Positions 1 to 25,392 of a DNA stretch of 32,062 bases are shown here, one piece after another. Below the pieces are notes generated by a model. It made no database searches. It worked only from the letters and a program-made list of their open reading frames with translations, and was not told where the DNA came from. Location of the stretch: IMG/VR virus record IMGVR_UViG_3300030117_006961, positions 1 through 32,062 of that record. One strand, written 5' to 3'. A program made the translations under genes and the position numbers. Within the stretch, counting starts at the first letter, position 1. Each line of letters begins with the position of its first letter. The DNA is from a virus.

Positions 1-262
1 GTCTATATTCACTAGCAGAATAATGCGCATCAGAATTATTTCCGGTATTGTATTTAAATAAAACATTACCGCCACTATCACTACCAGCATTTGTAACAAC
101 ATAATGTGTATTTAAAGTTTTTACTGTTTCCGTTCCGGTTGCTGTAGTTCTTATAATAACCTCAAGATCTGCATCAGCAAAAATCTTAAACCCATAGGCA
201 TAAGAATGTGTTGATCCATTTCCGGTTCCGGTTGCTGTAGTGGTAGTTGATGATATTGTCAC
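1..262 (-). CDS. Tail fibre protein, N-terminal fragment (T7 gp17-like)
   Basis: The 87 visible residues read as a T7-type tail-fibre N-terminal domain, the part that anchors the fibre to the tail. They begin T-I-S-S-T-T-T-T-A-T-G, contain HSYAYGFKIF and VIIRTT, and continue into the LNTHYVV...GGNVLFKY region seen in this family. The start is a GTG at 262-260 that overlaps the TGA of the preceding gene in a GTGA arrangement, so translation is probably coupled. The gene runs off the left window edge and its receptor-binding part is missing. The fragment at the right edge of the window may be the other end of the same gene. Confidence 0.75.
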   Translation of the reverse strand, partial: MTISSTTTTATGTGNGSTHSYAYGFKIFADADLEVIIRTTATGTETVKTLNTHYVVTNAGSDSGGNVLFKYNTGNNSDAHYSASEYR

Positions 263-3200
263 TGAGCATATTCCTTAACTAATTTTTTTTCTGTGTAGGC
301 TTGTAAAATGTCTTTGTTTTCTTCTTTAAACAAAAGAATTTCAAACCCTTGTTGATAAAAAGCGTTTTCTAGTTTTTTAATTTTTCTCACCTGGTCTTCA
401 TCTTTTGATGTTAAAAAATCAACACTTCCTAAAAGTGTCTCAAGGGCTTTACGAAATGTTTGCGGCGGCATACCTTCATAAGCGGGAAGGACAACTTCAT
501 TTTTTGCAACCTGGTTTAATTCACCACGAAAATATTTAGGCAAACTAATGCCATGCATAGTTTTCTTCTCAACTGCTAATGGCGCGCCTAACTTTACTAA
601 CTCCTTATGCCATTCAGGCATTTCTTCGCTGCGCGATATTTTAAATGGAGTCATGCTGTTCCATAAGGCTGCTACCGGATTAACACTATAAGGAACACTA
701 CTTTCAATTTTTTGACCTAACATATCGTATCGATATTGATAATCCGTAACATTTTCCTCATGCCAGGGATTATTCTTCATTTGATTACGCCAAAGATTTA
801 TAAATTCTTGCTGAAAAAATTGTGAATGAGAATAGTCTTTTACTGTTCCAACTAAATGATATGGAACCTCATCTAAAGGATAACGCTCTTCTAAAGATTT
901 ATCATACATAGCTTGAACATCTTCTATAGAATAATATTGAAGATCATTAGATACTTTTTTGTAAGTTGGATCTTGTAATTTATCTACGTTTCTCACAACC
1001 GCGCTATACGGCATTGGCAAAACACCCAATGTTGATTGCATTGGTGACCTATAAATTATTGATGGGTCTTCATATTCTATTGCAGCAAAAATTTCTCCCA
1101 TGCCTTGTAAAAAAGGTAATTCTTTAAAATAATTAAATGTTGCCATCCCAGAGGCAGATATAAAATTTGTTCTTTCAGCTGGATCAGAAATTCTTCTCAT
1201 TCTTTCTGCTGTATCAGCACTAATTCCTAAAAATGCAGATACCGGCTCTAATCCCGAATAATTTACATATAATAATTTCCCATTAGGATTGCCGTATTTA
1301 TCCCATATTGGAAGAAAATCCCCATCTTCATCTTTTGGGAAGTCTTTGCCTCTAAAAACAAAACTGTATGGCTGCCATCCTGGAGGCAACATATTTCTTA
1401 CTTTTTGATCACTTGGCATAGCGCCGGTCATTCGACCGTTTTGCGCTAAACTATAAAAATAGTACATTGTAGCAGTACCCATCGCTAATCTTGCTCTTGC
1501 CCTATCTGTCAATTTTGGGTCTACGTCAGGGGAGCCTAATAGTAATTTTCTGCCATTTGGTGTAGTTAATCGAAGAGCCGCCCATAAAGGATGACCATCA
1601 GCAACCATTCTTATGGCGTTTGTTGGTGCTTTTGCAAAAGGCAAAATTAATCGACCAAAAAAATCTTTTTGAACAACTCTTGTTAAAGCGCCTAATGCTT
1701 GTGGTAAATCTTGTGTTAAAGTTGCATACCTTGCAGCAGCATCCATTTCTTTACTTACAGAACGAGGATCTAATAAGACCATCATCGCATTATCAACCGC
1801 CTCTTGGTCTGTTCCACCATTAGCCAAAGTTTGCCGTGCTTTTCTATGAGCCTCTTCATAAAGAACACCCCTAGAATTTACTACACGCCAAAAGTCATCA
1901 ACCGCCGTTAATAATCTTCCTGGTATACGGATCATTTTGCCGAACCAATCAACACCTTTACCGTATGCGCCAGCAATCCTTAAATTTTCTGAATCAATTT
2001 GTTTATATTGATTAAATTCTATTTTTGATGCCTGGTCAGCTGGAACCTCTGTTGCAAAACTTTTATTTGCTACTACCCATGCATCAGCTATTGATTGCCT
2101 AAATCCATGCCATCTAGCTGCAACATCATCAAAAGTAATAGTTTCAAAATAATCTTTATCAAATTGTTTTCTGGCTTTACCAGCAACGGCAATACTTAAA
2201 TCAACCAATTGATTATAAGCCATCCAAATAGGCGTAGCAAAACCGTTTTTTAATTGTGTTTTTGGATAAGCAAGCATTCCATTAATATAGATCTCATGAA
2301 ACACACCTTTTGCTTTACTATCCCATCCAGAATACACAAATTTATTAGCATTAGCTTGACCACCTTCTAAAGCCTTTAAATATCCTTTTACTAATCCTTT
2401 TGTGTGGTTTACTCCTCCACCATCCTGGAGCATCTGAGTTACAGCCTCGGCTGCATCAACATTTGTTCTAGCACCTACTGGTATTTGAAAACTTTGTAAT
2501 GCCCTGGCAATTTCTGTTTGCGCTCCTTTTGCTTTCATTTGCAATCCAGCATGAACAGACATTAATTTTCTAAATTTTAATAATGTTATCGAACTGTCAT
2601 CACCAGCCTCAATTTCTTTAGCAACATTAGATAAATTTTCAGCAGATTTTTGGAGCATTATTCTTAAAGCTGTCATATCTTCAGCTTTTAATAAATCGCC
2701 CGATTTCATTTTTAAAATCTGTTTGGTAAACCCTATTTCATCAGCTAGTTTTTGCTGCGCAACTTCTAAAGTTTCTTTATTTGTTTTTATCCCTCTTTTT
2801 GCAGCCTCTGTAGGATTAGCAATAACTTCACTAACAGCATTTACTACTGCAAGTATTTCTTCACCACTCTCAAATTTGTTAAAATTAAAATCTATTCCTT
2901 CATCCGTTTGGATTAAGGCGCCTCTATTAACAAACATTTCAAAAACATCTAGCGCATCCCCTTCTGGGAAAGCACCGGTATCAAAATCGTTAACAGCCTT
3001 TTGTGCTGTTTCTGTCAGTGTTTCATCAGATGTTTTTTCAGCTGTTGCCATAGCCGCAGACAATTCTGTTGGATCAGTTGGCAAATTAGTTGCAATTTGC
3101 GCATCTCCACCAGCTGCCTGGAACCGTTCTAAACCACCTTCAGAAAGCATTTGTGGTGATAAGCCTTCTTGGGTTTGTGAATACGATACACCAGAAGGCA

Positions 3201-3405
3201 TTATAGCCTCGGTTGCTGGTTCCGGCACTCTACCAGCTACGCCATCAGTTTCTGTAGCTACATTATCTAAAGGCAAAGTTTTTTTGAGAATATTTTTAAT
3301 AAGACTCGCATATTGTGTATATTCTTGCGAATGCGGATTTTTATCCGCAAATGCAGTTACACCACCTTGGCTTAGAGCATCGCGCGCTTGATCTGTTGGT
3401 AACAT
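259..3405 (-). CDS. Very large internal virion / DNA-ejection protein (putative)
   Basis: This 1048-residue protein lies between the other internal virion genes and the tail fibre, where T7-like phages keep their gp15/gp16 ejection proteins. No lysozyme or transglycosylase motif is obvious. The middle half carries blocks I associate with large polyvalent or ejection proteins of environmental phages, such as FHEIYINGMLAYPKTQL, DDFWRVVNSRG, LPFAKAPTNAIRM (about residues 590-605) and NGRMTGAMP. The N-terminal 250 residues are acidic and helix-rich, suiting an elongated core protein. It is preceded by a terminator hairpin at 3414-3440, so it may be made at a different level from the genes upstream. 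Function rests on position and size; the exact family is unproven. Confidence 0.6.
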   Translation of the reverse strand: MLPTDQARDALSQGGVTAFADKNPHSQEYTQYASLIKNILKKTLPLDNVATETDGVAGRVPEPATEAIMPSGVSYSQTQEGLSPQMLSEGGLERFQAAGGDAQIATNLPTDPTELSAAMATAEKTSDETLTETAQKAVNDFDTGAFPEGDALDVFEMFVNRGALIQTDEGIDFNFNKFESGEEILAVVNAVSEVIANPTEAAKRGIKTNKETLEVAQQKLADEIGFTKQILKMKSGDLLKAEDMTALRIMLQKSAENLSNVAKEIEAGDDSSITLLKFRKLMSVHAGLQMKAKGAQTEIARALQSFQIPVGARTNVDAAEAVTQMLQDGGGVNHTKGLVKGYLKALEGGQANANKFVYSGWDSKAKGVFHEIYINGMLAYPKTQLKNGFATPIWMAYNQLVDLSIAVAGKARKQFDKDYFETITFDDVAARWHGFRQSIADAWVVANKSFATEVPADQASKIEFNQYKQIDSENLRIAGAYGKGVDWFGKMIRIPGRLLTAVDDFWRVVNSRGVLYEEAHRKARQTLANGGTDQEAVDNAMMVLLDPRSVSKEMDAAARYATLTQDLPQALGALTRVVQKDFFGRLILPFAKAPTNAIRMVADGHPLWAALRLTTPNGRKLLLGSPDVDPKLTDRARARLAMGTATMYYFYSLAQNGRMTGAMPSDQKVRNMLPPGWQPYSFVFRGKDFPKDEDGDFLPIWDKYGNPNGKLLYVNYSGLEPVSAFLGISADTAERMRRISDPAERTNFISASGMATFNYFKELPFLQGMGEIFAAIEYEDPSIIYRSPMQSTLGVLPMPYSAVVRNVDKLQDPTYKKVSNDLQYYSIEDVQAMYDKSLEERYPLDEVPYHLVGTVKDYSHSQFFQQEFINLWRNQMKNNPWHEENVTDYQYRYDMLGQKIESSVPYSVNPVAALWNSMTPFKISRSEEMPEWHKELVKLGAPLAVEKKTMHGISLPKYFRGELNQVAKNEVVLPAYEGMPPQTFRKALETLLGSVDFLTSKDEDQVRKIKKLENAFYQQGFEILLFKEENKDILQAYTEKKLVKEYAQ

Positions 3406-3501: not shown

Positions 3502-6500
3502 TTAGGAATTATTTTTGTTAGATATTAATGGCGTTAATGATACCGCCCCAACAATTCCAAATTTCTCTAATATTTTTATGGTTTTATCATCAAATATTAC
3601 AAACATAGTATCATTTGGTAATTTAACATATTTATGTCTTCCCATTCTGTCAGTGCCTGGCATACCATCATTACCAGGATCTTTAAAACCTTTATAACCG
3701 GCATTTTCCAATTCAGAAGTTAAAATTATTGATTTTCTATAATTTTTACCCAATGGGTTATTTGGCATTTTGCTCAGTAAATCTACAACTAATTTATTTT
3801 CATCTAGATTATATTCATCGTAATATTTTCTTAAAACGTCTTGCGCTTTTTGTGGAAGTTCATTTAATTTCATACCCATGTTTATTAATTGATCATCGCT
3901 AACATCTAAATTAACTTTATAGCCAACACCTTCTGTCTCTTTACCAATATTATCGTAAATATCTTGCTGGCGCATTGCTTTGTAATGTTCTGCAACATCT
4001 TTTTTACTGCTAAAATAAATACCATGGCCAAAGAATGTACGCCCGGTTCCGCTGGCAACTTTTTCTATTTTAAATTGATTAAAATCGGCGCCTGACCCAT
4101 GATAAGCAATTACACCAGGAGTATTACCACTTGGTGGAGTTACCTCAATATTTTGATTTAGTTCAGCGCTTGTTGCTGATTCCGTTTTACCGATCCGGTC
4201 AGATACATCTGTTTGGCTGACATTCCCGATTTCTCCGCCGCTATCTGTCGTTGCAGCTGTTGTACCACGAAAGTCTGCCCCTTTTGCTTGGCTTTCTCCA
4301 ATCGTAGTTCCAATTTGCTCTTCGTAACTTGTTCCGCCATTTATCCACTCCGTTCCAGGTCTATCCCGGTTCACATATACATTTGTATCATAATACGTCA
4401 TATTTGCAAAAGAAATTTCATTCATTTGACTAAGATCATTTACAACCTCATCAAATAAATTTTCCATTTCTTCACTTCTTATTGCAAGATTAGTTCCATC
4501 AAAAGAATCATCAAAATTAGGTATATATTGAAACCTAAAACCGGTTAAATTAGCTGTTTCAGTATTTCCTAATGCTTGAACATTTATTTGATCAGATTGT
4601 CTTGCATCCGTAATAAAAGTAAATCCATCAATACCTTTTTCCCTTAATAAGGTGGTTATTTTTTGGATAAAATCAACACCTTGAGTTGATCGGAAATAAA
4701 CCTCTACTCCAGGCAAGGCATTTGGTGTATCTGCTGAAACAACTTTTGAAACAAAAACTGCATCTTGATCATATTTACGACCAAGTTCAGCAACTTTATT
4801 CTTTAAAGGAATATCATTAAATTTTTCATTAGTAATTATTTCTACATTCAACGCTCTTTCCGGCTCTCCCGCAAATTCACCATAAGTATTATTTGCCTGG
4901 TAAGCTGCAACACTTTCATCATTAGATATAACGTCAGTTAGTTCATTTGACAGTTCTTGCATTTCTAAATTAGTTGGTGTTTCCTCTCTTTGCCTGGTAA
5001 TACCTACAACTGTCCTATCAAGAGGTGTAGCCATCTCTTCTAATTCTTTAGTAGCTAATGCTCTTGCCTCATCAGTACTATCTTTACTATCAATAATTTG
5101 CCTTAACTCATTAACTCTTTCTCTGTCAGCAATACCAGCTAAAGAAGACTCATAATCTAACGATCCAGCCTCTCCAGCTTTATTTGTCCAACCATTTTTA
5201 GTCCAATTCTCTTTTTCTAAAAACCACAATACTGCTTGCATATCATCAGGATTTAGATTTGAAATATTTTCATCAACATTTGAAATAATATTCATAACTT
5301 TAGCATCGTTATTTATTAATGCTGTTGCATCTCTAATTACTTCTTGCCCAAAATTAAACTCTGCCCCTATTACCGGATTATCAAACGTACTTTGTGTTAA
5401 ATGTTTGCCGCTAACCGCTTGCTGGGCAACCGGCGGTATACGATCATATCCAGCAATTTTTCTTAAATATCTTGCCGCCCAAACATCAATAGTAGCCTCT
5501 TCAGTAAATCCAATTAAATTGCCAGCGTAATTAATTGTTTTAGGTGATTTGCCCGCTTTAATTTGTCTAAATAAATCAAGTAATGCTCCGGTTGCAGCTG
5601 GACTATTTGCATTAAATAATTTGCCTGATGCATCTTTTATTAATTGGAAAGGATCATTTACATCTTTATCAAGATTATGAAGGGTTATAGTATCAACCTT
5701 TTCACCAGCATCAAGACGCTTTTTAAATAGATTTATTTCTTTATCAAAATCACCTCTTGAATATTGTCTTAAAATTTCAAGAGCATTATCCCAATTTGCC
5801 CTTACATTAGTTTGCGCTGATGTAGCCCCTAACAAATCTGCAAAAACATCACCAAGCCCTCCAAATTCTTGCCTTAACTTTGTGCGCATGGATCTATACC
5901 AATTTGCTTGTTTTATAATATCAATAGCAGCCTGATCACCATTTTCTGCTCTTTGCGCGAGTTCTTGAATATCAGAATAAGTTTTATTAATTAAATTTTT
6001 CTTATGGTTTTCAATAGAAATTCTTTTATCTTTTGGCTTATTAAATGACCAGGGTATTAACTGCCAATTTGGAATTACTTTACCTTCTTTATTAATTTTA
6101 AATGCTGGTTTGGAACTTTTTAAATGGATATTTATTGGCTCCCAACCATCTTGAGTTTTAAAATTATTTTTTACTCTTAAAATCTCATCTTTACCCTGGG
6201 TATAAATTGCATTTGAAACTTTGTTGTTTTTAGTTGCAGCATCTTTAACTAATTTATTTTCTAAATTTGATAATCGATTTATTACAATATTTTCTTCTTG
6301 TTTTGGAGCAAGTTTTGCCAGAATTTGGTCAATGCCTTTTTCAACTTCACCAATACCTAATGCAGATAAAGTTGTTCCGCCCTGGTCTAATCGACTTTGC
6401 GCATCTGTACCAATTTTCTGCATCATTTGCTGCCAGGGAACTTTTTTTGCTGTGTATATTAATGCCTGGACTACACCTTCCATAGCACCACCCGCAATCC

Positions 6501-7230
6501 CACCATCAACCATTGATTTCATACGGTTAAATATATCCGGGTTAGTCTCATTTTTTCGTAAGGCATTAACTATAACATTACCAAATGCTGTTCTTTCTTC
6601 CGGTGTTGCACCATCTAAATATTCAGTAAGCATTACAGCAAGAGTTTCATCATTAGGATTAAATGAGGCAAAATCTGCAATACCACCCCACAAAAATCCT
6701 CTTGTTACTGCATTTGCTGTTGTAAGACCTTTAACAAGTGTTGCAGCTGGAACAGCTGTTATCCCAAATTGCCCTATAACTTCCGCAATATTATTTAAAA
6801 TAGTTGGTTCATACTGTAACTGCTCATTTAAATAGGTATCAACTTCAGCACCACCTAAATAATTTTTGTAAAATTCATTAGCCGAATTTATCGCTGATTT
6901 AATTGAATCACTTCCGCCAACAACATTAGTATCATCATCCATAAAACCTAAAGATTTCATGGTGTAACCATACAAATCACCAGCTGCGCCTAGAACATCA
7001 GCAGCGGCACCAAAACTTTCTTCTGCTCCTTTAGCTGCACCTACAGTAAGCGCTTTAGATACATCTAATAACCCAGAGTTAACTATAGGGGGATTTTTTT
7101 GCGCCCCGGTAATAACATTTTTTAATTCTTCGGGTGATTTGCCAACATTTTCACCAAGCGGAGTTGGTTTAAACAGTGGAATATTTTTTATCTCAAATTC
7201 ATCGTATTGTTCTTGCTCATAATCCGACAT
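3502..7230 (-). CDS. Large polyvalent ejection protein with C-terminal ADP-ribosyltransferase-like domain
   Basis: This 1242-residue protein is in the internal-virion position of a T7-like late operon, so it is probably packaged and ejected with the DNA. At about residues 465-610 there is a block (DVFADLLGATSAQTNVRANW, later VWAARYLRKIAG and QQAVSGKHL) that resembles a conserved domain of phage polyvalent proteins. At residues 1039-1221 it has AYHGSGADF, then FGHGIYF, and near the end MFVIFDDKTIKIL, matching the order of motifs in the ART-PolyVal type of ADP-ribosyltransferase. The likely activity is transfer of ADP-ribose from NAD to a host target soon after entry; the target is unknown. Residues 960-1035 are a low-complexity Thr/Ser/Gly linker. 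The stop shares one base pattern with the terminator gap that follows, and the start overlaps the upstream stop by one base. Confidence 0.7.
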   Translation of the reverse strand: MSDYEQEQYDEFEIKNIPLFKPTPLGENVGKSPEELKNVITGAQKNPPIVNSGLLDVSKALTVGAAKGAEESFGAAADVLGAAGDLYGYTMKSLGFMDDDTNVVGGSDSIKSAINSANEFYKNYLGGAEVDTYLNEQLQYEPTILNNIAEVIGQFGITAVPAATLVKGLTTANAVTRGFLWGGIADFASFNPNDETLAVMLTEYLDGATPEERTAFGNVIVNALRKNETNPDIFNRMKSMVDGGIAGGAMEGVVQALIYTAKKVPWQQMMQKIGTDAQSRLDQGGTTLSALGIGEVEKGIDQILAKLAPKQEENIVINRLSNLENKLVKDAATKNNKVSNAIYTQGKDEILRVKNNFKTQDGWEPINIHLKSSKPAFKINKEGKVIPNWQLIPWSFNKPKDKRISIENHKKNLINKTYSDIQELAQRAENGDQAAIDIIKQANWYRSMRTKLRQEFGGLGDVFADLLGATSAQTNVRANWDNALEILRQYSRGDFDKEINLFKKRLDAGEKVDTITLHNLDKDVNDPFQLIKDASGKLFNANSPAATGALLDLFRQIKAGKSPKTINYAGNLIGFTEEATIDVWAARYLRKIAGYDRIPPVAQQAVSGKHLTQSTFDNPVIGAEFNFGQEVIRDATALINNDAKVMNIISNVDENISNLNPDDMQAVLWFLEKENWTKNGWTNKAGEAGSLDYESSLAGIADRERVNELRQIIDSKDSTDEARALATKELEEMATPLDRTVVGITRQREETPTNLEMQELSNELTDVISNDESVAAYQANNTYGEFAGEPERALNVEIITNEKFNDIPLKNKVAELGRKYDQDAVFVSKVVSADTPNALPGVEVYFRSTQGVDFIQKITTLLREKGIDGFTFITDARQSDQINVQALGNTETANLTGFRFQYIPNFDDSFDGTNLAIRSEEMENLFDEVVNDLSQMNEISFANMTYYDTNVYVNRDRPGTEWINGGTSYEEQIGTTIGESQAKGADFRGTTAATTDSGGEIGNVSQTDVSDRIGKTESATSAELNQNIEVTPPSGNTPGVIAYHGSGADFNQFKIEKVASGTGRTFFGHGIYFSSKKDVAEHYKAMRQQDIYDNIGKETEGVGYKVNLDVSDDQLINMGMKLNELPQKAQDVLRKYYDEYNLDENKLVVDLLSKMPNNPLGKNYRKSIILTSELENAGYKGFKDPGNDGMPGTDRMGRHKYVKLPNDTMFVIFDDKTIKILEKFGIVGAVSLTPLISNKNNS

Positions 7231-8879
7231 TATTTAATACCTTCTTCTTGAGCAAATTTGCTCATTTCTCTATAAAAACCTAATAACAATGGATTTGTAC
7301 TCATTTGTTTTACAATCTCTGGACTTCTTAAAAACTGCAAAACGCTTTGTAATCTATTGTCTGGGTCTTCTGTATACCCAGCGGCTACTAATTGATTTAC
7401 AATTGCTGCGTATTCCATATTAAATTGATCTTGAATAATTGGCGTTAAATCTTCTTTGTTACTAGAAATAATACTTTTTGCCTTATCTATTATTGCTGCA
7501 TAGGTTGAACCTTTGCCTTCATCATCTAACCAATTCCGTAACTCAAGCATTGAATCATGATATTGCATTGTGGTTGCTGCCGCATAGGCGCTTGGCATAT
7601 CTTTATATTTTTCATATTTAAATGCTGATGATATTAATGCTTTAGCATTTGTAACACCTTGCCCAGCCTCAGAAGTAACTTCCTTTAACCAGGACTTATA
7701 GTCCGCATCCGATAATAAATTTTCTTTGCGATATTCTTCTATTACATCAAATGTTAATAAATTTTCATTATCAAGTTTATTTAAATGCGCAATAGCCTTA
7801 TCATCTGATTTTGTTTGTTTTTCCGTTTCTGGGTCTTCTGGTTTTGTAAAATTATCTAAAGCATTTCGTTTTGATGCATCTATAAAATCTGTATCAGAAT
7901 TATACAATTCAGTTTTTAATTTATTAATTTCATCTATATCTTTAATTGGATCTAATTTAAAAATGTCGCTAAAAATTTGTTTGTCATTATTTAATGCCTC
8001 TAGTTCAAGCGCTTTTTCTCTGTTTTCTCTCTCTTCATCAATACTACCAGCTAAAGACTTTAAGCTATTAATAATAGACATTTTTTTGCTTGGGTCTAAA
8101 AGGTTAGCATCAAGAATTTTTTGAATTAATGGATCATTTGATTTACCAGCAGCAAGACCTAAAACAATACCTAAAGCATCATCATTATTCGGTTGAGTCA
8201 TTGCATCTCTTAAAGTTCCAACTATCACATCTTCTAATGCCTGATCATTTAATGTAACAAGTTCATTTCCTCTAAAATAACCCGCTTGACCAGCCATTGG
8301 TATAATGCCATTTTCCGCATTAAAAATTTCGTTAAATGACTTTAACCTTTGTTCTATTGGAATATTCATATCGGCAATATTCCGTATTTTATTTTTTATG
8401 CTTATTTTAACATTATGTTTAGCGTGATCACTAATACGCTTGGCATTGTTTTCTTTAAATTTAATAAGACTATTACTAATCATTTCCTGGGCTGGAAAAC
8501 CAAAAGACCCTACTGCTCTTTTATTTAATAGTAAATTTCCACTGCCATCAGTTTTTGTTCCGCTTGTATAAGTTTTAAATAAATTTTGTAATTCTTTTTC
8601 ATAATTAAGTTCTGCTTGATTAGGATTTAGCGCAGCCTCTTGTTCAAATTGTTGTGTTAAGTTAAAAATGTCATCTTTTAATAATATACTTGCACGATTA
8701 ACCTGATTTTGTGCCTCTATCTTTTCTTTCTCTTGACCAACATTAAAAAATAAATTTCCTACTTTTTGTAAGGCTTGTCCTTGGGCTGCCCAAGCACCAG
8801 GGCTTGCTTGTGCTGTTAAAGTACCGCCTCCATAAGTTTTTGGCATTCCAACTTGCGATGTATATGTAGGAACTTTCAT
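7230..8879 (-). CDS. Internal virion protein, coiled-coil rich (gp15-like position)
   Basis: This 549-residue protein is largely helical and charged, with long heptad-like stretches at about residues 50-90 and 275-345. The N-terminus (MKVPTYTSQVGMPKTYGGG) is glycine-rich and resembles the start of internal core proteins that follow gp14-like genes in podoviruses. No enzyme motif was found. The start codon overlaps the upstream stop by one base, and its stop overlaps the start of the next gene by one base, so the three genes are probably translationally coupled. The role as an ejectosome component is inferred from position. Confidence 0.55.
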   Translation of the reverse strand: MKVPTYTSQVGMPKTYGGGTLTAQASPGAWAAQGQALQKVGNLFFNVGQEKEKIEAQNQVNRASILLKDDIFNLTQQFEQEAALNPNQAELNYEKELQNLFKTYTSGTKTDGSGNLLLNKRAVGSFGFPAQEMISNSLIKFKENNAKRISDHAKHNVKISIKNKIRNIADMNIPIEQRLKSFNEIFNAENGIIPMAGQAGYFRGNELVTLNDQALEDVIVGTLRDAMTQPNNDDALGIVLGLAAGKSNDPLIQKILDANLLDPSKKMSIINSLKSLAGSIDEERENREKALELEALNNDKQIFSDIFKLDPIKDIDEINKLKTELYNSDTDFIDASKRNALDNFTKPEDPETEKQTKSDDKAIAHLNKLDNENLLTFDVIEEYRKENLLSDADYKSWLKEVTSEAGQGVTNAKALISSAFKYEKYKDMPSAYAAATTMQYHDSMLELRNWLDDEGKGSTYAAIIDKAKSIISSNKEDLTPIIQDQFNMEYAAIVNQLVAAGYTEDPDNRLQSVLQFLRSPEIVKQMSTNPLLLGFYREMSKFAQEEGIK

Positions 8880-9340
8880 TAAGCAAAACTCGACAATAAA
8901 CTGCCCATTGCTTGAGTTCGCATAGCGCGCGCTTGCATATTAGCCTCATATTTTTTTAATTGACCGGTTAATTTCATATTTATAGAACTTTCGATGTATG
9001 CTGTTTTTTCTGCCTCGGCGTTAACTTTCATCATTTGTATATCTTTTTCCGCCTCAACAGCATTTGCTAACTGCACTTCTAGTGCTGTTCCGCTTGTTGA
9101 TACAATCCCGCTTTTCATATATGCCTGGGATGCCGCTTTATTTAACTGCTGAAATTTTTCTCTAAAGCGTGATATTGCTAATTCATTTTTAAATTGCGCA
9201 TATTCCGCTTTGTTTTTTTCAACTTCTGAATTACGGTCATAAATCTGTTTATTGTATTCACCAGCTTGTTGAACACCTTTTGCGGCTTTCATTCCGCCCA
9301 TGGCAGAAATACCAGCACCAATTATTGTAAATGGACTCAT
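8879..9340 (-). CDS. Internal virion protein (T7 gp14-like)
   Basis: The 153-residue product begins with a short hydrophobic, glycine-rich segment (IIGAGISAMGGM, residues 6-17), then forms a long charged helix, then ends MGSLLSSFA. This pattern, together with the GTALEVQLANAVEAEKD block, is typical of the gp14-like ejection protein, which in T7 inserts into the outer membrane to open the DNA channel. It sits directly after the GNAT gene with a one-base overlap and directly before the coiled-coil internal protein. Length is a little below T7 gp14 (196 residues). Confidence 0.65.
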   Translation of the reverse strand: MSPFTIIGAGISAMGGMKAAKGVQQAGEYNKQIYDRNSEVEKNKAEYAQFKNELAISRFREKFQQLNKAASQAYMKSGIVSTSGTALEVQLANAVEAEKDIQMMKVNAEAEKTAYIESSINMKLTGQLKKYEANMQARAMRTQAMGSLLSSFA

Positions 9341-9780
9341 TATATTACCTTTGCATATCGTAGTACGTTAACTTTATCGGGTGTGTATTTTTGCATTTCA
9401 CCCTCATTTTTCATGCCCACAAACTCGGCAAATTTAATTGCTTTCTTATAATCAATGCGAACATGAGCCTGGATTCTATGAAAGTTTTTTTCTTTCATTA
9501 TCCTGGTTAAATTTTTTTTAATTGCCCTGGATATTTTTATTGGATGTTGATTCATCTTTTGGCTGCCTAAAAACCATGCCTCACCAACACCATCCCAAAT
9601 TTCATAAATGCCAGCACAAGCAATTAATTCATCATTAATAATACCGGTAAAACTTAATTCTGCTTTACACATTTCTTTAACAAATTCGATTAACTGAATA
9701 ACCGGTCTGTTTTTTTCATCATTTAATGACTCTGCTAAAAGAGCATCAGCATGGCTAATATTAAAATTTACAATTTGCAT
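9340..9780 (-). CDS. GNAT-fold acetyltransferase-like protein (gp13-like position)
   Basis: The 146 residues have the secondary-structure order of a GNAT fold: an N-terminal strand/helix, then FTGIINDELIACAGIYEIWDGVGEAWFLGS (strands beta2-beta4), then a helix with KISRAIKKNLTRIM and a C-terminal FAEFVGMKNEG segment in the usual place of beta5-alpha4. The classical Q/R-x-x-G-x-G/A acetyl-CoA loop is not clear, so catalysis is uncertain. T7-like phages often carry such a gene (the gp13 position) next to the internal core genes, where it acts in virion assembly. Both neighbours overlap it by a single base. Confidence 0.6.
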   Translation of the reverse strand: MQIVNFNISHADALLAESLNDEKNRPVIQLIEFVKEMCKAELSFTGIINDELIACAGIYEIWDGVGEAWFLGSQKMNQHPIKISRAIKKNLTRIMKEKNFHRIQAHVRIDYKKAIKFAEFVGMKNEGEMQKYTPDKVNVLRYAKVI

Positions 9781-20062: not shown

Positions 20063-20467
20063 TTATTTTTGCAAGTAATACAATTTTAATAACGCCTCAT
20101 CAAACTGTCTTTTGATTATCCTGGGATCTTTATAACCGAGCATTTTACTAACCTTAGTCCATTGCGCTCCGCGTTGTCGATAAGCAGCAGAATAAGCTAT
20201 GCCCCAAACAATCTTTCTTTCTTTAACATCAAGTAGCGTTGCTAAATCTAATGCCAGGTCATAGCGGCTAATCTGCTCTGGTGTTGCTTTTGTTATTGTA
20301 GTGCCAGCTTGTGTCCAGCCATAACTATGCCAATCTTTAGGGTAATCGACCCATGTCGATAGCTTTTGCTTTTTAATAGCTGGTGGTAGCTTTCTATTTG
20401 TTTCAGCTGCCTCAAAGAACAAATCTAAAAGTTCATTAACTTTTAATTTTTTCGATACTTGTAACAA
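20063..20467 (-). CDS. DUF6362-like protein, possible late regulator
   Basis: This 134-residue protein matches the pattern I associate with DUF6362: STWVDYPKDWHSYGW, then ATPEQISRYDLALDLATLLDVKERKIVWGIAYSAA, then QWTKVSKMLGYKDPRIIKRQFDEALLKL. The last part looks like a helix-turn-helix. Such proteins sit just before terminase genes in several alphaproteobacterial phages. The start is a TTG at 20467 that overlaps the upstream gene by 32 bases; no ATG is available nearby. A DNA-binding role, perhaps in late transcription, is inference. Confidence 0.55.
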   Translation of the reverse strand: MLQVSKKLKVNELLDLFFEAAETNRKLPPAIKKQKLSTWVDYPKDWHSYGWTQAGTTITKATPEQISRYDLALDLATLLDVKERKIVWGIAYSAAYRQRGAQWTKVSKMLGYKDPRIIKRQFDEALLKLYYLQK

Positions 20468-20777
20468 TCTTTTCTCTTTCTGTAAGCGATGCTTGAGATA
20501 AGGCCTTCATAAAGTTGGAATAGTCGTGAACAGACAAGAACGGTCTGACCTTTTTTAGAGCCTTTGATAAACGCCAATCATCCGGATGGTTACGGCGATG
20601 ATCCTTGCCCATTTTGTAGGGAACGCTGGTCGATTTTAAAGCGCGCGTTAATCCCTCTCTATACTGTATAGATGTATAGCTAGCTTTATTTTTACTATGT
20701 AGGGATTCTTTATTCTGTATAGCTTGCTGTATAGCTAGCTTTAAGTTTGTAGAAATAATTTTAATTCTGTCATTCAT
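20436..20777 (-). CDS. Unknown protein, basic
   Basis: The 113-residue product is basic and helical, with an N-terminal KIISTNLKLAIQQAIQNKE segment and a C-terminal RKALKK...HDYSNFMKALSQASLTEREKIV region. The start overlaps the upstream stop as ATGA. The DNA for its first 40 codons contains an imperfect direct repeat (20659-20743). I recognise no family. Its position between a zinc-ribbon protein and a DUF6362-like protein suggests an early regulatory or DNA-binding role, which is unproven. Confidence 0.5.
   Translation of the reverse strand: MNDRIKIISTNLKLAIQQAIQNKESLHSKNKASYTSIQYREGLTRALKSTSVPYKMGKDHRRNHPDDWRLSKALKKVRPFLSVHDYSNFMKALSQASLTEREKIVTSIEKIKS
20659..20743 (-). repeat. Imperfect direct repeat inside a coding region
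   Basis: On the minus strand two copies of TAAAGCTAGCTATACA followed by CTATACAG begin at about 20743 and 20689. The two copies are in different reading frames of the overlapping gene, so the repetition is at DNA or RNA level and not a protein repeat. It may be a binding site or a nut-like element. Confidence 0.45.
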
Positions 20778-21085
20778 TTTTTGTCAACACCTAATTCTCT
20801 TAAGGTAAAACTGGAGTCAGTCACTTCGCTCCAAATATCTTGTAAACCCATGGGATTTTCGGTTCGTTTTTTTATATATTTTGGCAAGAAAGTTTTTGGT
20901 TTAACAATTTTCTTTTCATCTCTGTTTTGTAATTTATTCTCACGCCGAACTGATTCGTCAGAATAAATTTCCCTGGTAAAAAAAACAGCAGGACATTTTA
21001 AACATCTCCGGCGGCGCCTAATCTCAATACCATCTTCCCTACTGTCCAGGACTTTTGTTTTGCCTTTGCATTGTTTACATCTCAT
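20774..21085 (-). CDS. NrdR-like zinc-ribbon protein without ATP cone
   Basis: From the ATG at 21085 the protein begins MRCKQCKGKTKVLDSR, then IRRRRRCLKCPAVFFTRE. The four cysteines C3, C6, C28 and C31 and the D-S-R...RRRR-C pattern closely match the zinc ribbon of the ribonucleotide reductase regulator NrdR. The ATP-cone domain that follows in true NrdR is replaced by about 60 polar residues, so nucleotide sensing is unlikely. It is probably a small DNA-binding regulator. The start overlaps the upstream gene as ATGA. The alternative GTG at 21094 adds three residues and seems less likely. Confidence 0.65.
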   Translation of the reverse strand: MRCKQCKGKTKVLDSREDGIEIRRRRRCLKCPAVFFTREIYSDESVRRENKLQNRDEKKIVKPKTFLPKYIKKRTENPMGLQDIWSEVTDSSFTLRELGVDKK

Positions 21086-21909
21086 ACGCCACACATCCCT
21101 TCACATTCATCCAGAAAGTTTAATTGCCCTCTATCTTCGGCTGTCGATAAGTCAGCATCTTTTAAAGGAACTCTTGATTCATGAACAAATTGCTCTTTGC
21201 CATGAAAATCTATTCTTAACTTTTCATCAATTTGAATGGCTTTTTCCCAACCCTTTTTGTCATTATCTTTTAAATAACGCCACTCATCATTTCTTTTAAA
21301 AGGGCAATACACACAAGCCGATCTGGGTAACGATCTGTTTTTAAAATAATTATTAAAAAAAATTTTACAGTCATTTCTGTTCATCCCTTGTTCAATTAAA
21401 GGATATCTATTTTCTATATATTTTATGTTGCTAAATTTAACCCTTTGTAATTCATCTGTTGAAATACCTATCCATTGTTCCACCATGATGCCTTTTGAAA
21501 CCTTTTGTCTTTTTTTAACATTTAATAAATCTCTAATTTTATTTTTGATAGGTTCAATTTTATAGGCTCTTGTACAATGCCTTAATGACATTCTATACTC
21601 TTTTGAGTGTAATGGAGCCATTACTCCATTTTTTGTATCTTTATTTGACAAAGCCACAAGGGCATCGCTTAAAGGTTTTCCATTTTTTGAAACTGTAAAT
21701 ATTTTAAAAGGTAATACTTTTTTTAACCAATCTAAATGTGTGTAAACTTCATCTGGCTCATCCATTGTATCAGCAAAGATTGCACAATCAGGCATGGGTG
21801 TTATTTTACCCATACCAGCCATTAGTGCCATAACAGACGATTGAACCCCAGCACCTAAACTAATAACCCTTAGATCAGCACCAGGTATCTGTTTACTAAA
21901 ACTTATCAT
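21082..21909 (-). CDS. PAPS-reductase-like PP-loop enzyme
   Basis: The 275-residue product has a PP-loop-type motif VISLGAGVQSSVMALMA (about residues 15-31), then CAIFADTMDEPDEVYTHLDWL, which is the phage branch of the phosphoadenosine phosphosulfate reductase-like family. Later it has RHCTRAYKIEPIKNKIR (about residue 110), SACVYCPFKRNDEWRYL (about 198-214) and CEGMC near the end; the cysteines could bind an Fe-S cluster or a metal. Related enzymes activate a substrate with ATP for sulfur transfer (for example DndC-like and TtcA-like). The substrate here is unknown. It starts one base after the VRR-NUC gene, so it belongs to the early leftward operon. Confidence 0.75.
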   Translation of the reverse strand: MISFSKQIPGADLRVISLGAGVQSSVMALMAGMGKITPMPDCAIFADTMDEPDEVYTHLDWLKKVLPFKIFTVSKNGKPLSDALVALSNKDTKNGVMAPLHSKEYRMSLRHCTRAYKIEPIKNKIRDLLNVKKRQKVSKGIMVEQWIGISTDELQRVKFSNIKYIENRYPLIEQGMNRNDCKIFFNNYFKNRSLPRSACVYCPFKRNDEWRYLKDNDKKGWEKAIQIDEKLRIDFHGKEQFVHESRVPLKDADLSTAEDRGQLNFLDECEGMCGV

Positions 21910-22341
21910 TTAAGCACCAACCATCCTTCCCCACTTTTCAATGCCAGAACGGTTGCCATTATCGCGTAGCGTTATTAACTCATTTAAAAAGAATATAATT
22001 GTATCTAATTTGTTAGCTGTCAGAACATGACAACCAATATTTTTTAACTGCTCTTGAACGCTCTCCTGGAATGGCGATAGCTTTCCTTTGCCGGTTGGCG
22101 ATTTTAATTCAATGAATATTGGCTTAAATGTCTTATTGTGAAAATGTTTGCCTGGAACATAAATCTCTAAATCACACCATCCCGCTTTCATGCCCAGCTT
22201 TTTTAATTTCATTTTAAAACTTACATGACGTTTACCCTCATTCGGTGAATGATGATAGAGAGATCCATTAGGTAAAGCGTTGTCCAGCCAATTTACAACC
22301 AGCTGCTGAAACTCTTCTTCAATCATTGCGGTAAAAATCAT
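21910..22341 (-). CDS. VRR-NUC-type nuclease
   Basis: The 143-residue protein has the VRR-NUC pattern of the PD-(D/E)XK fold: HHSPNEGKR (residues 30-38), KLGMKAGWCDLEIYVPG with D57, then PIFIELKSPTGKGKLSPFQ with E78 and K80. These residues coordinate metal and cut DNA; relatives act on branched DNA such as Holliday junctions. It follows the Cro-like gene with a small overlap, so it is expressed early. An internal ATG at 22326 is a possible alternative start. Confidence 0.8.
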   Translation of the reverse strand: MIFTAMIEEEFQQLVVNWLDNALPNGSLYHHSPNEGKRHVSFKMKLKKLGMKAGWCDLEIYVPGKHFHNKTFKPIFIELKSPTGKGKLSPFQESVQEQLKNIGCHVLTANKLDTIIFFLNELITLRDNGNRSGIEKWGRMVGA

Positions 22342-22528
22342 TAGGCTGAACCGCGCCCATCGTTATGTTTTGTATCACAAGCATAAACTTTTTATTGGGA
22401 ATCATTCGATCTTTGTGATTCGTAGGTAGACACCAACGCCTTGCTACAGTGGCGTGTCTTGCACCACATATTGTGGCAAGCCTCTCAAAACTCAGCTTAT
22501 GTTGTGTTCGATATTCATTTAATGTCAT
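22319..22528 (-). CDS. Cro-like helix-turn-helix regulator
   Basis: From ATG 22528 the 69-residue product reads MTLNEYRTQHKLSFERLATICGARHATVARRW, a compact helix-turn-helix (about residues 12-32), then a short C-terminus ending PNDFYRND. It is transcribed away from the repressor across a 100-base shared control region, as in lambda cro. An upstream ATG at 22543 lies inside the operator dyad at 22540-22568, so I prefer 22528. It is the first gene of the leftward series that leads to the terminase and virion genes. Confidence 0.7.
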   Translation of the reverse strand: MTLNEYRTQHKLSFERLATICGARHATVARRWCLPTNHKDRMIPNKKFMLVIQNITMGAVQPNDFYRND

Positions 22529-22539
22529 AACAATTTGTA

Positions 22540-22568
22540 ACATTATTGACAGTAGATAGTCAAAATGT
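22540..22568. promoter_or_regulatory. Operator dyad in the repressor/Cro control region
   Basis: TTGAC...GTCAA (22546-22563, eight-base spacer) is extended outward by ACATT...AATGT. It contains the 11-mer TTGACAGTAGA, which recurs at 23355-23365, with close variants at 23287-23309 and 28495-28505. It is probably bound by the repressor or the Cro-like protein. Confidence 0.65.
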
Positions 22569-22574
22569 TAATTA
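22546..22574 (+). promoter_or_regulatory. Candidate repressor promoter
   Basis: TTGACA (22546-22551) is a perfect -35 box. After 17 bases comes TAATTA (22569-22574) as a possible -10 box. The operator dyad overlaps it, which would allow autoregulation. Predicted only. Confidence 0.4.
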
Positions 22575-22631
22575 TCTAATTTCATAATTGTCAGAAAATG
22601 TCATTAGTATTTAAAGGAAGGGAGAAGTATA

Positions 22632-23285
22632 ATGATCGACATGGCTTTTAAAAGTAATTTAGATAAATACATACAACAGTCAGGCTACACAAAAGAAGAA
22701 GTAGCAAGACGTAAAGGGATAGCACCTGAATCTTTGTCCAGGCATATTAGCGGAAGATCAAAGTTTTCTGTGCAAGACGCTATTGAGTACGCTAATATTT
22801 TAGGCACAAGACCAGAGCAAATATTATTTGATCATAAACAAATTAAAGTTTTTGGTTTTAACAATATGATTAAAATTCGGGTTCTCGATAATTCAGAAAG
22901 ACAATGCTATTTGACTTCCCCTTTTCCTTATAAGCCCTCAGTCCAGGTCATTGTAAATGAAGATTGCGATGATAGTTCTTTTAACGACCATATCATTTAT
23001 GTTGATACAAAGTATATGGAATATAGTCGTATCCAGCAGCAGTGTTATGGGGCGATATGTGTTATTAAATGCAGCAATAACATAGTAAGCGTTAAAAAAA
23101 TTTACCCAAACCCACCATCAACAAATGAGATTAATGGACAAAGACAATCCTTTACTTGTGTTCCTCATTTTTCTGTGCAAGGTGGGCAAGTTCAAACCGA
23201 TGTAGTGTTGCAATATGCAATGCCAATTTTATCAGTGACCTTTCGCCCTGATCTTATCGGTTTAGAATTTAGCTGGCGTTCATAA
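22632..23285 (+). CDS. CI-like lysogeny repressor with degenerate S24-type C-terminus
   Basis: The 217-residue product has an N-terminal XRE-type helix-turn-helix (about residues 8-60: SGYTKEEVARRKGIAPESLSRHISGR), then a C-terminal beta-rich domain with CYGAICVIKC and VSVKKIYPNP at the place of the S24 peptidase fold of LexA/CI proteins. The Gly-Asp-x-Met motif that surrounds the catalytic Ser in self-cleaving repressors is not visible. Induction by RecA-stimulated cleavage is therefore doubtful. GGGAG seven bases before the ATG is a good ribosome-binding site. It is divergent from the Cro-like gene and precedes the recombination operon. Confidence 0.75.
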   Translation: MIDMAFKSNLDKYIQQSGYTKEEVARRKGIAPESLSRHISGRSKFSVQDAIEYANILGTRPEQILFDHKQIKVFGFNNMIKIRVLDNSERQCYLTSPFPYKPSVQVIVNEDCDDSSFNDHIIYVDTKYMEYSRIQQQCYGAICVIKCSNNIVSVKKIYPNPPSTNEINGQRQSFTCVPHFSVQGGQVQTDVVLQYAMPILSVTFRPDLIGLEFSWRS

Positions 23286-23286
23286 G

Positions 23287-23309
23287 TTAACAGTAAAATT
23301 GACAGTTAA
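23287..23309 (+). promoter_or_regulatory. Tandem operator-like half sites after the repressor gene
   Basis: TTAACAGTAAA (23287-23297) and TTGACAGTTAA (23299-23309) lie head to tail with a 12-bp period. The first is identical to the minus-strand site before the integrase gene (28495-28505). Confidence 0.5.
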
Positions 23310-23352
23310 ATAACATCAATTTGATACCTAATTGATTTTTTATTAATCTTTT

Positions 23353-23373
23353 ACTTGACAGTAGACGTCAAGT
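23353..23373. promoter_or_regulatory. Perfect operator dyad before the recombination operon
   Basis: ACTTGAC and GTCAAGT form a perfect 7-bp dyad around a seven-base spacer. It contains the same TTGACAGTAGA as the switch operator. The TTGACA could also be a -35 box, with TACTCT (23379-23384) as a weak -10 box, so bound repressor would block the recombination genes. Confidence 0.6.
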
Positions 23374-23407
23374 GGAATTACTCTAAAATTTCAAAATTGT
23401 TAGAAAG

Positions 23408-24337
23408 ATGTATATGACCTCGATACCAACTGTTCCCACCTGGGCGGCAAATAAACACTATTATTGGCATTCTAATCCCGAATCACGACCGATCTGTCAG
23501 GTCTACTTTGATAAGTGTTTTATAAGACCTAAAAAAGATCATGCCTGGGAAATTATAAAATCTAATAATAAGTCTGATGCCGCTGCTTTAGCGTATGAGA
23601 CAATTAATTTTTATAGAGATGATAACGCTAATATGATGGCGGGTAGATCTGTCCAGGAAATGTGCAATAAATTATTATTGGAAAACGAATCGGAGCAAAG
23701 TGTAATATCTTTTGGCTCCGATTTTTTTGAGAACTATCATCCCCGCAATTGGGATAATGGGAAAGATATTGATAAGCATCAAATTAATATTGCCGAATTT
23801 GTTGATGTATATAAATCAGCAAGTAATGGCATTAAAGAGGCAGCCAACCAGCTGCGCATCAATCGACTTGAGGGTGAGGAAAACTTAATGTTTAAAATGC
23901 CAGGACTAAATCTCCCTTATAATGGCATTCCTGATTTTAATGGATCGATAGAATTAAAAACCAAATGGTCTTCTATCAGTTCAAAAGCAAAATCCGGCAA
24001 AACAACTGCAAGTTTACCTAGCAAACCATTATATTCTCATGTTTGCCAAGTAGCGGGTTATTGGTTTGAAAAAAAACGCCCTCAAGCGATTGTATACGCC
24101 AATAAAAATGATTTTAGGATATTTACTGACCAAAATTGCGAACTTCTTACAGAAGAGGCTCTAAACGGCGTTATTCGTTATATGACCGGTCAGTTGCTAA
24201 TTCGCGAGAACCAACTTAAAGCAGCAAAGGATGTTCAGTCATTATTACGAATTATTACCCCGCAATTCAATCATATGTGGGCTTGGGATTATCAACCAGA
24301 AGTTTTACGAGAGGCAAAGCAATTATGGGGGTTTTAA
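23408..24337 (+). CDS. RecB/lambda-type 5'-3' exonuclease (YqaJ-like)
   Basis: The 309-residue product looks like the exonuclease of a phage recombination pair. It has MAGRSVQEMCNKLL (about residues 77-90), corresponding to the first conserved helix, then PYNGIPDFNGSIELKTKW (about 170-187) with the metal-binding Asp and the E-x-K of the PD-(D/E)XK fold, and HVCQVAGYWFEKK, the usual Gln-x-x-x-Tyr motif. It would resect DNA ends to give single strands for the ERF-like protein encoded downstream. It is the first gene of the rightward operon behind the operator dyad. A second ATG (23414) is possible. Confidence 0.75.
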   Translation: MYMTSIPTVPTWAANKHYYWHSNPESRPICQVYFDKCFIRPKKDHAWEIIKSNNKSDAAALAYETINFYRDDNANMMAGRSVQEMCNKLLLENESEQSVISFGSDFFENYHPRNWDNGKDIDKHQINIAEFVDVYKSASNGIKEAANQLRINRLEGEENLMFKMPGLNLPYNGIPDFNGSIELKTKWSSISSKAKSGKTTASLPSKPLYSHVCQVAGYWFEKKRPQAIVYANKNDFRIFTDQNCELLTEEALNGVIRYMTGQLLIRENQLKAAKDVQSLLRIITPQFNHMWAWDYQPEVLREAKQLWGF

Positions 24338-24339
24338 CC

Positions 24340-24477
24340 ATGGAGAAAAAAGAAAATACAAAAGAGGAAAATTTAGAAAAAACAAAAAAGAAAATTTTAG
24401 AACTTATGGCAAAACTCAGTGATGAGGATTTAGCACTTATGATGGAAATTTTACAAAATTGGAGGATTTTAAAATGA
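24340..24477 (+). CDS. Small coiled-coil protein (45 aa)
   Basis: The ATG at 24340 lies two bases after the exonuclease stop. The 45 residues are almost all charged or helix-forming (MEKKENTKEENLEKTKKKI, then LMAKLSDEDLALMMEIL). A longer reading from 24277 would overlap the exonuclease gene and is less likely. It may be a small partner of the recombination proteins; the function is unknown. Confidence 0.5.
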   Translation: MEKKENTKEENLEKTKKKILELMAKLSDEDLALMMEILQNWRILK

Positions 24478-24794
24478 ACAATATGTTTGCCCAAATGAAT
24501 ACACCTATAAATATGCGCGATGCAAAATTTCGTTTGTTTCACGAAAAATATCCAGAGGTTTACGACCTTTGGGATAATTTTACAAAAGAGGCAATTATTA
24601 AAGGTGCAAAAAGTATGGGGAGCCAAATGATATTTGAGCGTATTCGATGGGAGACAAAACTTAATATGAAGACTAATGAGGCTTTTAAATTAAATGATCA
24701 CCTGGTTCCCTACTATGCCAGGTTATGGATGGAAAAAAATCCAGACTATCCAAAATTTTTTAATACAAGAAAGGTAGAGGGTCAAAATGATTGA
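24474..24794 (+). CDS. Unknown protein in the recombination operon
   Basis: The ATG at 24474 is preceded by GGAGG with good spacing and gives 106 residues. It contains KFRLFHEKYPEVYDLWDNF, MIFERIRWETKLN and LNDHLVPYYARLWMEKNPDYPKFFNTR. I recognise this as a pattern that recurs in phage recombination or early regions, but know no function. The stop overlaps the next start by eight bases, so it is likely coupled with the ERF-like gene. Confidence 0.6.
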   Translation: MNNMFAQMNTPINMRDAKFRLFHEKYPEVYDLWDNFTKEAIIKGAKSMGSQMIFERIRWETKLNMKTNEAFKLNDHLVPYYARLWMEKNPDYPKFFNTRKVEGQND

Positions 24795-25392
24795 TGAAGA
24801 TTTTGAAACATATAATTTAATTCAAAAAGAATTACAAAATGCCCCTACAATTAAAGATGGTAAATTAAAAGGGTATATTGATGTTGCCTCAAGAGTAAAT
24901 ATTTTTAGAAAATATTACCAGCACCTTAGTTTAATATCTAATCTTATTGTTGATACTGATGAAAGAGTTGTGTTTCAAACAGAAGTTCGTGACCGAGAGG
25001 GTAATGTTCTTGCAACCGGTTATGCTGAAGAACTTCGTAATGCAAATTATATAAATAAAACATCATGTTTAGAAAATTGTGAAACAAGTTCATGGGGGCG
25101 CGCGCTTGCTAATTATGGTTTAGCTGGGCAAAAAATAGCATCTGCTGATGAAGTTAAAAATGCAGTACAACAACAATCTGATTTGCAACAACAAAATAAA
25201 TTAACAATTTCTGACTTTAAAGCGCAGCTAGAGACTTTTACAAAACTTGAAGAATTGCAGAGATGGGCGTCAAAAAATAGCATCCGTTTAAATGAATTAA
25301 AAAAGTTAGAGGCAGATGCATACAAAGATTTAGATAAAAGCTATCAGGCTAAAGAAAAAAAATTAAAAAATGAGAAAGAGGCTAAAGGATGA
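24787..25392 (+). CDS. ERF-like single-strand annealing protein
   Basis: The 201-residue product has YIDVASRVNIFRKYY near residue 30, then VVFQTEVRDREGNVLATGYAEE, and the typical NKTSCLENCETSSWGRALANYGL followed by IASADEV (about residues 97-127). This motif set is characteristic of ERF-type or related annealing proteins, which pair complementary single strands. The C-terminal 75 residues are Gln/Lys-rich and likely flexible. It pairs functionally with the exonuclease at the head of the operon. Confidence 0.65.
   Translation: MIDEDFETYNLIQKELQNAPTIKDGKLKGYIDVASRVNIFRKYYQHLSLISNLIVDTDERVVFQTEVRDREGNVLATGYAEELRNANYINKTSCLENCETSSWGRALANYGLAGQKIASADEVKNAVQQQSDLQQQNKLTISDFKAQLETFTKLEELQRWASKNSIRLNELKKLEADAYKDLDKSYQAKEKKLKNEKEAKG

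What the first reader, a model, noticed from the sequence alone, without database searches (positions are those of the whole stretch)
3502..7230. ADP-ribosyltransferase-like domain on a large ejection-type virion protein
The C-terminal 200 residues of a 1242-residue protein in the internal-virion position carry AYHGSGADF, FGHGIYF and VIFDDKTIKIL, the order seen in polyvalent-protein ADP-ribosyltransferases. If it is packaged, the phage would deliver a modifying enzyme at the moment of DNA entry, as T4 does with Alt. A T7-like podovirus of this type with an ejected ADP-ribosyltransferase would be unusual and its target is unknown.
Basis: partly seen in the sequence, partly recalled or inferred. 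Interest (0 to 1): 0.6.

Follow-up and report, generated by a model that had tools for sequence, protein, structure and literature searches.

The report
Swappable enzyme payload on phage injection protein
A marine phage gene in the block that makes the proteins a phage injects ahead of its DNA ends in an enzyme-like domain of a known phage family (ADP-ribosyltransferase), and related phages swap this domain for unrelated ones at exactly the same spot, which suggests an interchangeable payload fired into the host at the start of infection.

Summary
The 1242-aa minus-strand ORF at 3502-7230 ends in an ADP-ribosyltransferase (ART) domain of the ART-PolyVal / Tox-ART-HYD2 kind. All three active-site positions are present (H1044, Y1072, D1214). 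The isolated domain passes the Pfam cutoff (31.4 vs 31.2 bits) and AlphaFold2 gives an ART-like fold whose best PDB match is a protein of a solved podovirus pre-ejectosome (cyanophage A-4L). The gene lies next to internal virion protein D, as claimed.

ARTs at this position are not rare: the same slot holds ART proteins in many uncultured marine podovirus contigs. The phage looks like a temperate HTVC010P/epsilon15-like podovirus, not clearly T7-like.

The new point is the slot. Near-identical phages (94-98% DNA identity on both sides) carry the same N-terminal carrier with different C-terminal payloads: an ART, or either of two DUF7178-related domains. The window phage and relative L017 stack one DUF7178-like domain and an ART. 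No immunity-gene-sized gap follows the ART versions. I read this as a modular, ejected host-modifying effector. Packaging, NAD chemistry and target are inferred, not shown.

The parts
3502..7230 (-). 1242-aa slot protein: N-terminal carrier, DUF7178-like core, linker, C-terminal ART
6250..7230 (-). residues 1-327, N-terminal carrier module, shared in relatives between proteins that carry ART and proteins that carry the DUF7178-like core
4309..6249 (-). residues 328-974, DUF7178-like core: helical domain (about 328-735) plus tandem ferredoxin-like domain (about 738-955)
   Evidence: AF2 pLDDT 90.5; Pfam DUF7178 in 23 of 27 relatives; at least 461 IMG/VR stretches
4144..4308 (-). residues 975-1029, low-conservation linker (32% identity to L017; GC about 47% against 32-33% on both sides)
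3556..4110 (-). residues 1041-1225, ART-PolyVal domain
4099..4101 (-). H1044, predicted active-site His in strand 1
4015..4017 (-). Y1072, predicted active-site Tyr in strand 2
3589..3591 (-). D1214, predicted active-site Asp at the end of the penultimate strand
259..3405 (-). 1048-aa internal virion protein D-like (gp16-position) gene, 96 nt downstream; no room for an immunity gene
   Evidence: phrog_6651 E=3.6e-20; IVP-D of marine podophages
7230..8879 (-). 549-aa gp15-position protein, translationally coupled upstream neighbour
   Evidence: position and synteny
8879..9340 (-). 153-aa internal virion protein (phrog_418)

Best explanation
The gene encodes a modular ejection-associated effector of a temperate HTVC010P/epsilon15-like marine podovirus. 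An N-terminal carrier module takes the protein into the internal virion (ejectosome) set. A DUF7178-like core and a C-terminal H-Y-D ART are payloads that reach the host cytoplasm with or just before the DNA. There the ART would use NAD+ to mono-ADP-ribosylate host macromolecules in favour of early infection, as proposed for polyvalent-protein ARTs and shown for T4 Alt. Shown here: ART family membership and predicted fold, conserved triad, location in the internal-virion block, and exchange of payloads between near-identical phages at the carrier/payload boundary. Inferred: packaging, ejection, catalysis and target.
For: Pfam ART-PolyVal hit and triad. AF2 model pLDDT 79, with the ART core above 90; Foldseek best hit 9k3a_B, cyanophage A4 pre-ejectosome, E=3e-4, prob 1.00, followed by sub-significant hits to diphtheria toxin catalytic domain, MbcT, RES and PARPs. 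9k3a_B is A-4L protein A4L_27, which carries YHGT..GSGTYF..LVINP at 1425-1589. Gene order MCP > tail A > tail B > (GNAT) > IVP-B > gp15-like > slot gene > IVP-D holds across tens of contigs. Payload exchange: L102 (ART) against L040 (core) is 96.5% identical in DNA through the carrier and 97.8% from the start of IVP-D on, with no match between; L099/L041 and L106/L061 repeat this; L184 adds a third payload in the same carrier. ART kept at 47% identity between window and L017 while the linker is 32%. ART-only slot genes abut IVP-D (-62 to +127 nt), leaving no immunity gene.
Against: No virion proteomics for this phage. No cultured relative encodes this protein at tblastn level. Whole-protein Pfam score is just below the gathering cutoff. 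Foldseek matches to canonical ARTs are above E=0.05, and the region of 9k3a_B matched is not printed by the tool. Most core-family homologues lack the ART (81 of 84), so the ART is dispensable to the core. D is replaced by N or G in some relatives, so activity may vary.
Confidence: 0.66

Rival explanations
1. The ART domain is a structural part of the ejectosome: an ART-like fold that has lost or does not need NAD chemistry and serves assembly or conduit formation.
For: In cyanophage A-4L the ART-like motifs lie in a protein resolved in the pre-ejectosome, so such folds can sit in the ordered assembly. The Asp is not invariant.
Against: Phages with near-identical flanks replace the ART by unrelated domains, and most homologues of the window protein lack it; a required structural part would not be swapped so freely. 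His and Tyr are kept in nearly all relatives.
Confidence: 0.15
2. The ART acts on phage components or DNA, for example modifying its own ejection proteins or protecting DNA, or is an NAD glycohydrolase that depletes NAD, rather than modifying host proteins.
For: ART-fold phage and bacterial enzymes include DNA-modifying and NAD-degrading members (literature: PMC9503650; PMC13285283 by title and abstract).
Against: H-Y-D ARTs of polyvalent proteins are grouped with protein-modifying ARTs (PMC5512222). No direct test.
Confidence: 0.15
3. Interbacterial polymorphic toxin of the MuF sort, made by the prophage and released to kill competitors, with a cognate immunity protein.
For: N-terminal carrier with variable C-terminal domain, in a probable temperate phage; 14% of MuF toxins are putative ARTs and 89% of MuF toxin genes are followed by a small ORF (PMC5576092).
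Against: No MuF domain. ART-only slot genes run straight into IVP-D and the window gap is 96 nt, so there is no immunity ORF.
Confidence: 0.04

Closest known systems
ART-PolyVal (Pfam PF18760) / Tox-ART-HYD2 ARTs of polyvalent proteins (Iyer et al. 2017, PMC5512222), prototype Roseovarius Plymouth podovirus 1 virion RNAP
   Same: H-Y-D triad in the same order, ART fused in a large late-gene protein of a podovirus, predicted ejection with DNA
   Different: Here fused to a DUF7178-like core and an N-terminal module, not to an N4-like RNAP; the slot shows allelic exchange of payloads
Cyanopodophage A-4L A4L_27 (PDB 9k3a_B, pre-ejectosome)
   Same: Internal-virion protein of a short-tailed phage with an ART-like domain; best structural match of the ART model
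   Different: No sequence-level match to the ART profile beyond the motifs, different rest of protein (1717 aa); the structure paper could not be read here
T4 Alt
   Same: Packaged ART ejected with DNA (by analogy)
   Different: Alt is of the R-S-E-2 clade, not H-Y-D; a stand-alone head protein of a myovirus
MuF polymorphic toxins of temperate phages (PMC5576092)
   Same: Conserved N-terminal virion part with exchangeable C-terminal domains, some of them ARTs
   Different: No MuF domain, no downstream immunity ORF, different morphogenetic protein

Membership tests
ART-PolyVal / Tox-ART-HYD2 | Profile match at the curated cutoff | tested here: met
   Isolated domain 31.4 bits against cutoff 31.2; whole protein 28.8, just below
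ART-PolyVal / Tox-ART-HYD2 | H in strand 1, Y in strand 2, D in strand 5 | tested here: met
   H1044 in model strand 11-17, Y1072 in strand 42-45, D1214 two residues after strand 180-183 (model residue = residue - 1029)
ART superfamily | ART fold | tested here: met
   AF2 pTM 0.77; Foldseek best 9k3a_B E=3e-4; canonical ARTs follow at E 0.06-0.5, so support is moderate
ART superfamily | NAD+-dependent transferase activity | not testable with these tools
   needs purified protein
Polyvalent proteins | Two or more distinct domains in one polypeptide encoded with virion genes | tested here: met
   N-terminal module + DUF7178-like core + ART, in the internal-virion block
Polyvalent proteins | Companion domains of the published network (MPTase, LPDs, ArdC, SNF2 etc.) | tested here: inconclusive
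   None by Pfam in the window protein; relative L009 has core + ART + LPD38 in one protein
T4 Alt / VIP2 clade | R-S-E active site | tested here: not met
   H-Y-D motifs instead
MuF polymorphic toxins | MuF domain | tested here: not met
   no Pfam MuF hit at E<=1
MuF polymorphic toxins | small immunity ORF directly downstream | tested here: not met
   96-nt gap in the window; -62 to +127 nt in 21 ART-only loci
T7-like (Autographiviridae) phage | single-subunit RNA polymerase gene | tested here: inconclusive
   not apparent among the larger ORFs and no dedicated search was run; the record may be incomplete; tail genes nearest HTVC010P-type and epsilon15-like phages
Virion (ejection) protein | present in purified particles | not testable with these tools
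   position only; needs proteomics

The most novel reading that the evidence does not exclude
The gene directly upstream of internal virion protein D in a large group of uncultured marine podoviruses is a polymorphic effector slot: one N-terminal ejection carrier, with C-terminal payloads (H-Y-D ART, at least two DUF7178-type domains, possibly others) exchanged between near-identical phages as cassettes and delivered into the host before or with the DNA, without immunity genes.
Probability: 0.6. Interest if true: 0.72.

Novelty: new variant of a known kind. Interest (0 to 1): 0.56.

Why it matters
If true, short-tailed phages of the open ocean use their ejection proteins as an exchangeable delivery device for host-modifying enzymes. 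The payloads that differ between otherwise near-identical phages point straight at host factors or defences under selection, and give ready-made natural pairs for testing (same phage, different payload). It also extends the polyvalent-protein idea from a catalogue of domains to an observable, recent exchange at a fixed locus, and supplies a way to find unknown early effectors: look for what else sits on this carrier.

Tried and rejected
(1) That residues 430-600 of the core are a helix-hairpin-helix DNA glycosylase (TIDVWAAR resembles the glycosylase VDVH loop): AF2 gave a high-confidence model but Foldseek found no glycosylase among the PDB matches listed. (2) Core as a SAM lyase: weak match of one ferredoxin-like part only (E 0.1, prob 0.92), probably a shared fold. 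(3) Close cultured relatives: no tblastn hit for the window protein or the L017 protein in 50,697 phage records. (4) Sequence search of PDB with the ART and core profiles gave nothing meaningful. (5) Search for the window's own N-terminal module in viral contigs returned nothing; the exchange evidence therefore comes from other lineages. (6) Chimeric assembly as the cause of the payload swap: each allele occurs in several independent metagenomes (ART: L099, L102, L186; core: L039, L040, L041, L089), so unlikely. (7) Defence-system families: no PADLOC hit for the slot proteins.

Full report
1. The observation. The ORF at 3502-7230 on the minus strand is real: 1242 aa, ATG start, TAATG overlap with the gene before it and GAAGG upstream. 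The three quoted motifs are present in the stated order and give H1044, Y1072 and D1214. The ordered set did not arise in 200,000 shuffles of the region. Pfam ART-PolyVal matches with E=2.4e-6. The whole-protein score (28.8 bits) is just under the curated cutoff of 31.2, and the isolated domain (31.4) is just over it. In an alignment of 19 relatives His is nearly invariant and Tyr invariant; the Asp is D in most and N or G in a few.

2. Fold. AlphaFold2 on a 19-row alignment gave pLDDT 79 and pTM 0.77, with the core strands above 90. H1044 falls in the first strand, Y1072 in the second, and D1214 two residues past the penultimate strand, as described for ARTs of polyvalent proteins (PMC5512222). 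Foldseek against PDB put 9k3a_B first (E=3e-4, probability 1.00), followed by diphtheria toxin catalytic domain, MbcT, RES toxins and PARPs at sub-significant E-values. 9k3a_B is the 1717-aa protein A4L_27 of cyanophage A-4L, solved inside the pre-ejectosome. Its gene lies in the internal-protein block, and it carries YHGT at 1425, GSGTYF at 1444 and LVINP at 1589. The tool does not print which residues were superposed, and the structure paper is not held, so that the ART lies in the ordered part is inferred from the match and the motifs together.

3. Place in the genome. The order is terminase, portal, scaffold, major capsid, tail tubular A and B, a GNAT-like protein, a 153-aa internal virion protein (phrog_418), a 549-aa protein, the 1242-aa protein, and a 1048-aa internal virion protein (phrog_6651; homologous to 'internal virion protein D' of pelagiphages and roseophages). 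The tail nearest relatives are HTVC010P-type pelagiphages and epsilon15-like phages. With a tyrosine integrase and a Cro/CI-type HTH protein this looks like a temperate podovirus, and 'T7-like' is not established.

4. Anatomy. Residues 328-974 form a domain found in at least 461 IMG/VR stretches. It is distantly related to DUF7178 (23 of 27 rows) and predicted with high confidence (pLDDT 90.5) as a helical domain plus a tandem ferredoxin-like domain. It has no convincing PDB match and matches other large phage proteins, including ones annotated with polyvalent-associated domains, in the viral library. Of 84 distinct, 3'-complete homologues, 81 lack an ART, and many of these stop right after this domain. 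The window protein, L017 and L009 have an ART behind it. L017 has the same gene order (capsid 87% identical) and the same architecture. Between window and L017 the ART is 47% identical, the core 51-57%, the N-terminus 40% and the linker 32%, so the ART is under constraint. Window and L017 are sisters in both the core and the ART trees (SH-aLRT 99 and 98, with long branches).

5. The slot. ART proteins without the core (about 450-880 aa) lie in the same place. In all 21 ART-only loci where internal virion protein D was detectable it is the next gene; for core-only loci this holds in 54 of 55. The sets were selected by similarity and contain near-duplicates, so the counts are not frequencies in nature.

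6. Payload exchange. N-terminal regions of ART-only and core-only proteins fall largely into one similarity cluster (113 of 145), and some cross-pairs are 94-97% identical. DNA comparison shows clean replacement. L102 (ART) and L040 (core) match at 96.5% through the gp15-like gene and the carrier module to L102:5106 / L040:6886, show no similarity over the payloads, and match again at 97.8% from L102:6280 / L040:9008, the start of internal virion protein D. L099/L041 and L106/L061 show the same pattern. L184 has the same carrier with a third payload that hits DUF7178 and is shared at 67% DNA identity with L197, which has a different carrier. Each allele is seen in several metagenomes, which argues against chimeric assembly.

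7. Reading. This is the layout of a delivery part with interchangeable cargo. MuF polymorphic toxins have a comparable layout, but there 89% of toxin genes are followed by a small putative immunity ORF (PMC5576092). Here ART-only genes run into the next structural gene (-62 to +127 nt) and the window gap is 96 nt. This fits an effector delivered to a host that is to be taken over, rather than a toxin against neighbours. ARTs of polyvalent proteins have been proposed to modify host proteins early in infection, with T4 Alt as the model (PMC5512222, PMC9503650). Packaging, delivery to the cytoplasm, catalysis and target remain untested for this protein.

8. Novelty. The ART itself is a new member of a described family, and an ART in a podovirus ejection protein has precedent. 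I found no report in the held library of cassette exchange at this locus, but that library is partial. I therefore rate it a new variant of a known kind.

Noticed in passing
L102:4101-6296 vs L040:5878-8877; L099 vs L041; L106 vs L061; L184:480-2651: Same N-terminal carrier, different C-terminal payloads, flanked by 90-98% identical DNA: cassette exchange in the gene upstream of internal virion protein D.
   Followed up: yes
L180 (Anabaena phage A-4L, KF356198) 20116-25269: A4L_27, the protein of PDB 9k3a_B in the solved pre-ejectosome, carries ART-like motifs YHGT/GSGTYF/LVINP at residues 1425-1589; Pfam does not recognise it.
   Followed up: partly
window 4309-6249: DUF7178-like core: high-confidence predicted fold (helical plus tandem ferredoxin-like) in at least 461 viral stretches, no convincing PDB match, function unknown; itself one of the exchanged payloads.
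   Followed up: partly
L078:1-5967 and L077:698-6652: Large core-containing proteins with other C-terminal domains: a zeta-toxin match (PF06414, 47.9 bits) in L078 and a weak ASCH match in L077.
   Followed up: no
core-only loci, e.g. L040 8877-9008: Many core-only slot genes are followed by a 117-224 nt gap before internal virion protein D, while ART-only genes mostly abut it; reason unknown.
   Followed up: no
window 21082-21909: PAPS-reductase-like protein with a PADLOC SspD match (E=3.8e-19): possible DNA sulfur-modification gene in a phage.
   Followed up: no
window 9340-9780: GNAT-like protein in the internal-virion block (phrog_308/phrog_4177), annotated 'putative acetyltransferase' in HTVC010P-type pelagiphages; another possible delivered enzyme.
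   Followed up: no
window 22632-23285 and 27262-28449: HTH repressor-like gene and tyrosine integrase: the phage is probably temperate.
   Followed up: no
L006:7439-11977: Relative in which the core is fused behind an SLT transglycosylase domain (PF01464), as found in T7 gp16 N-termini.
   Followed up: no
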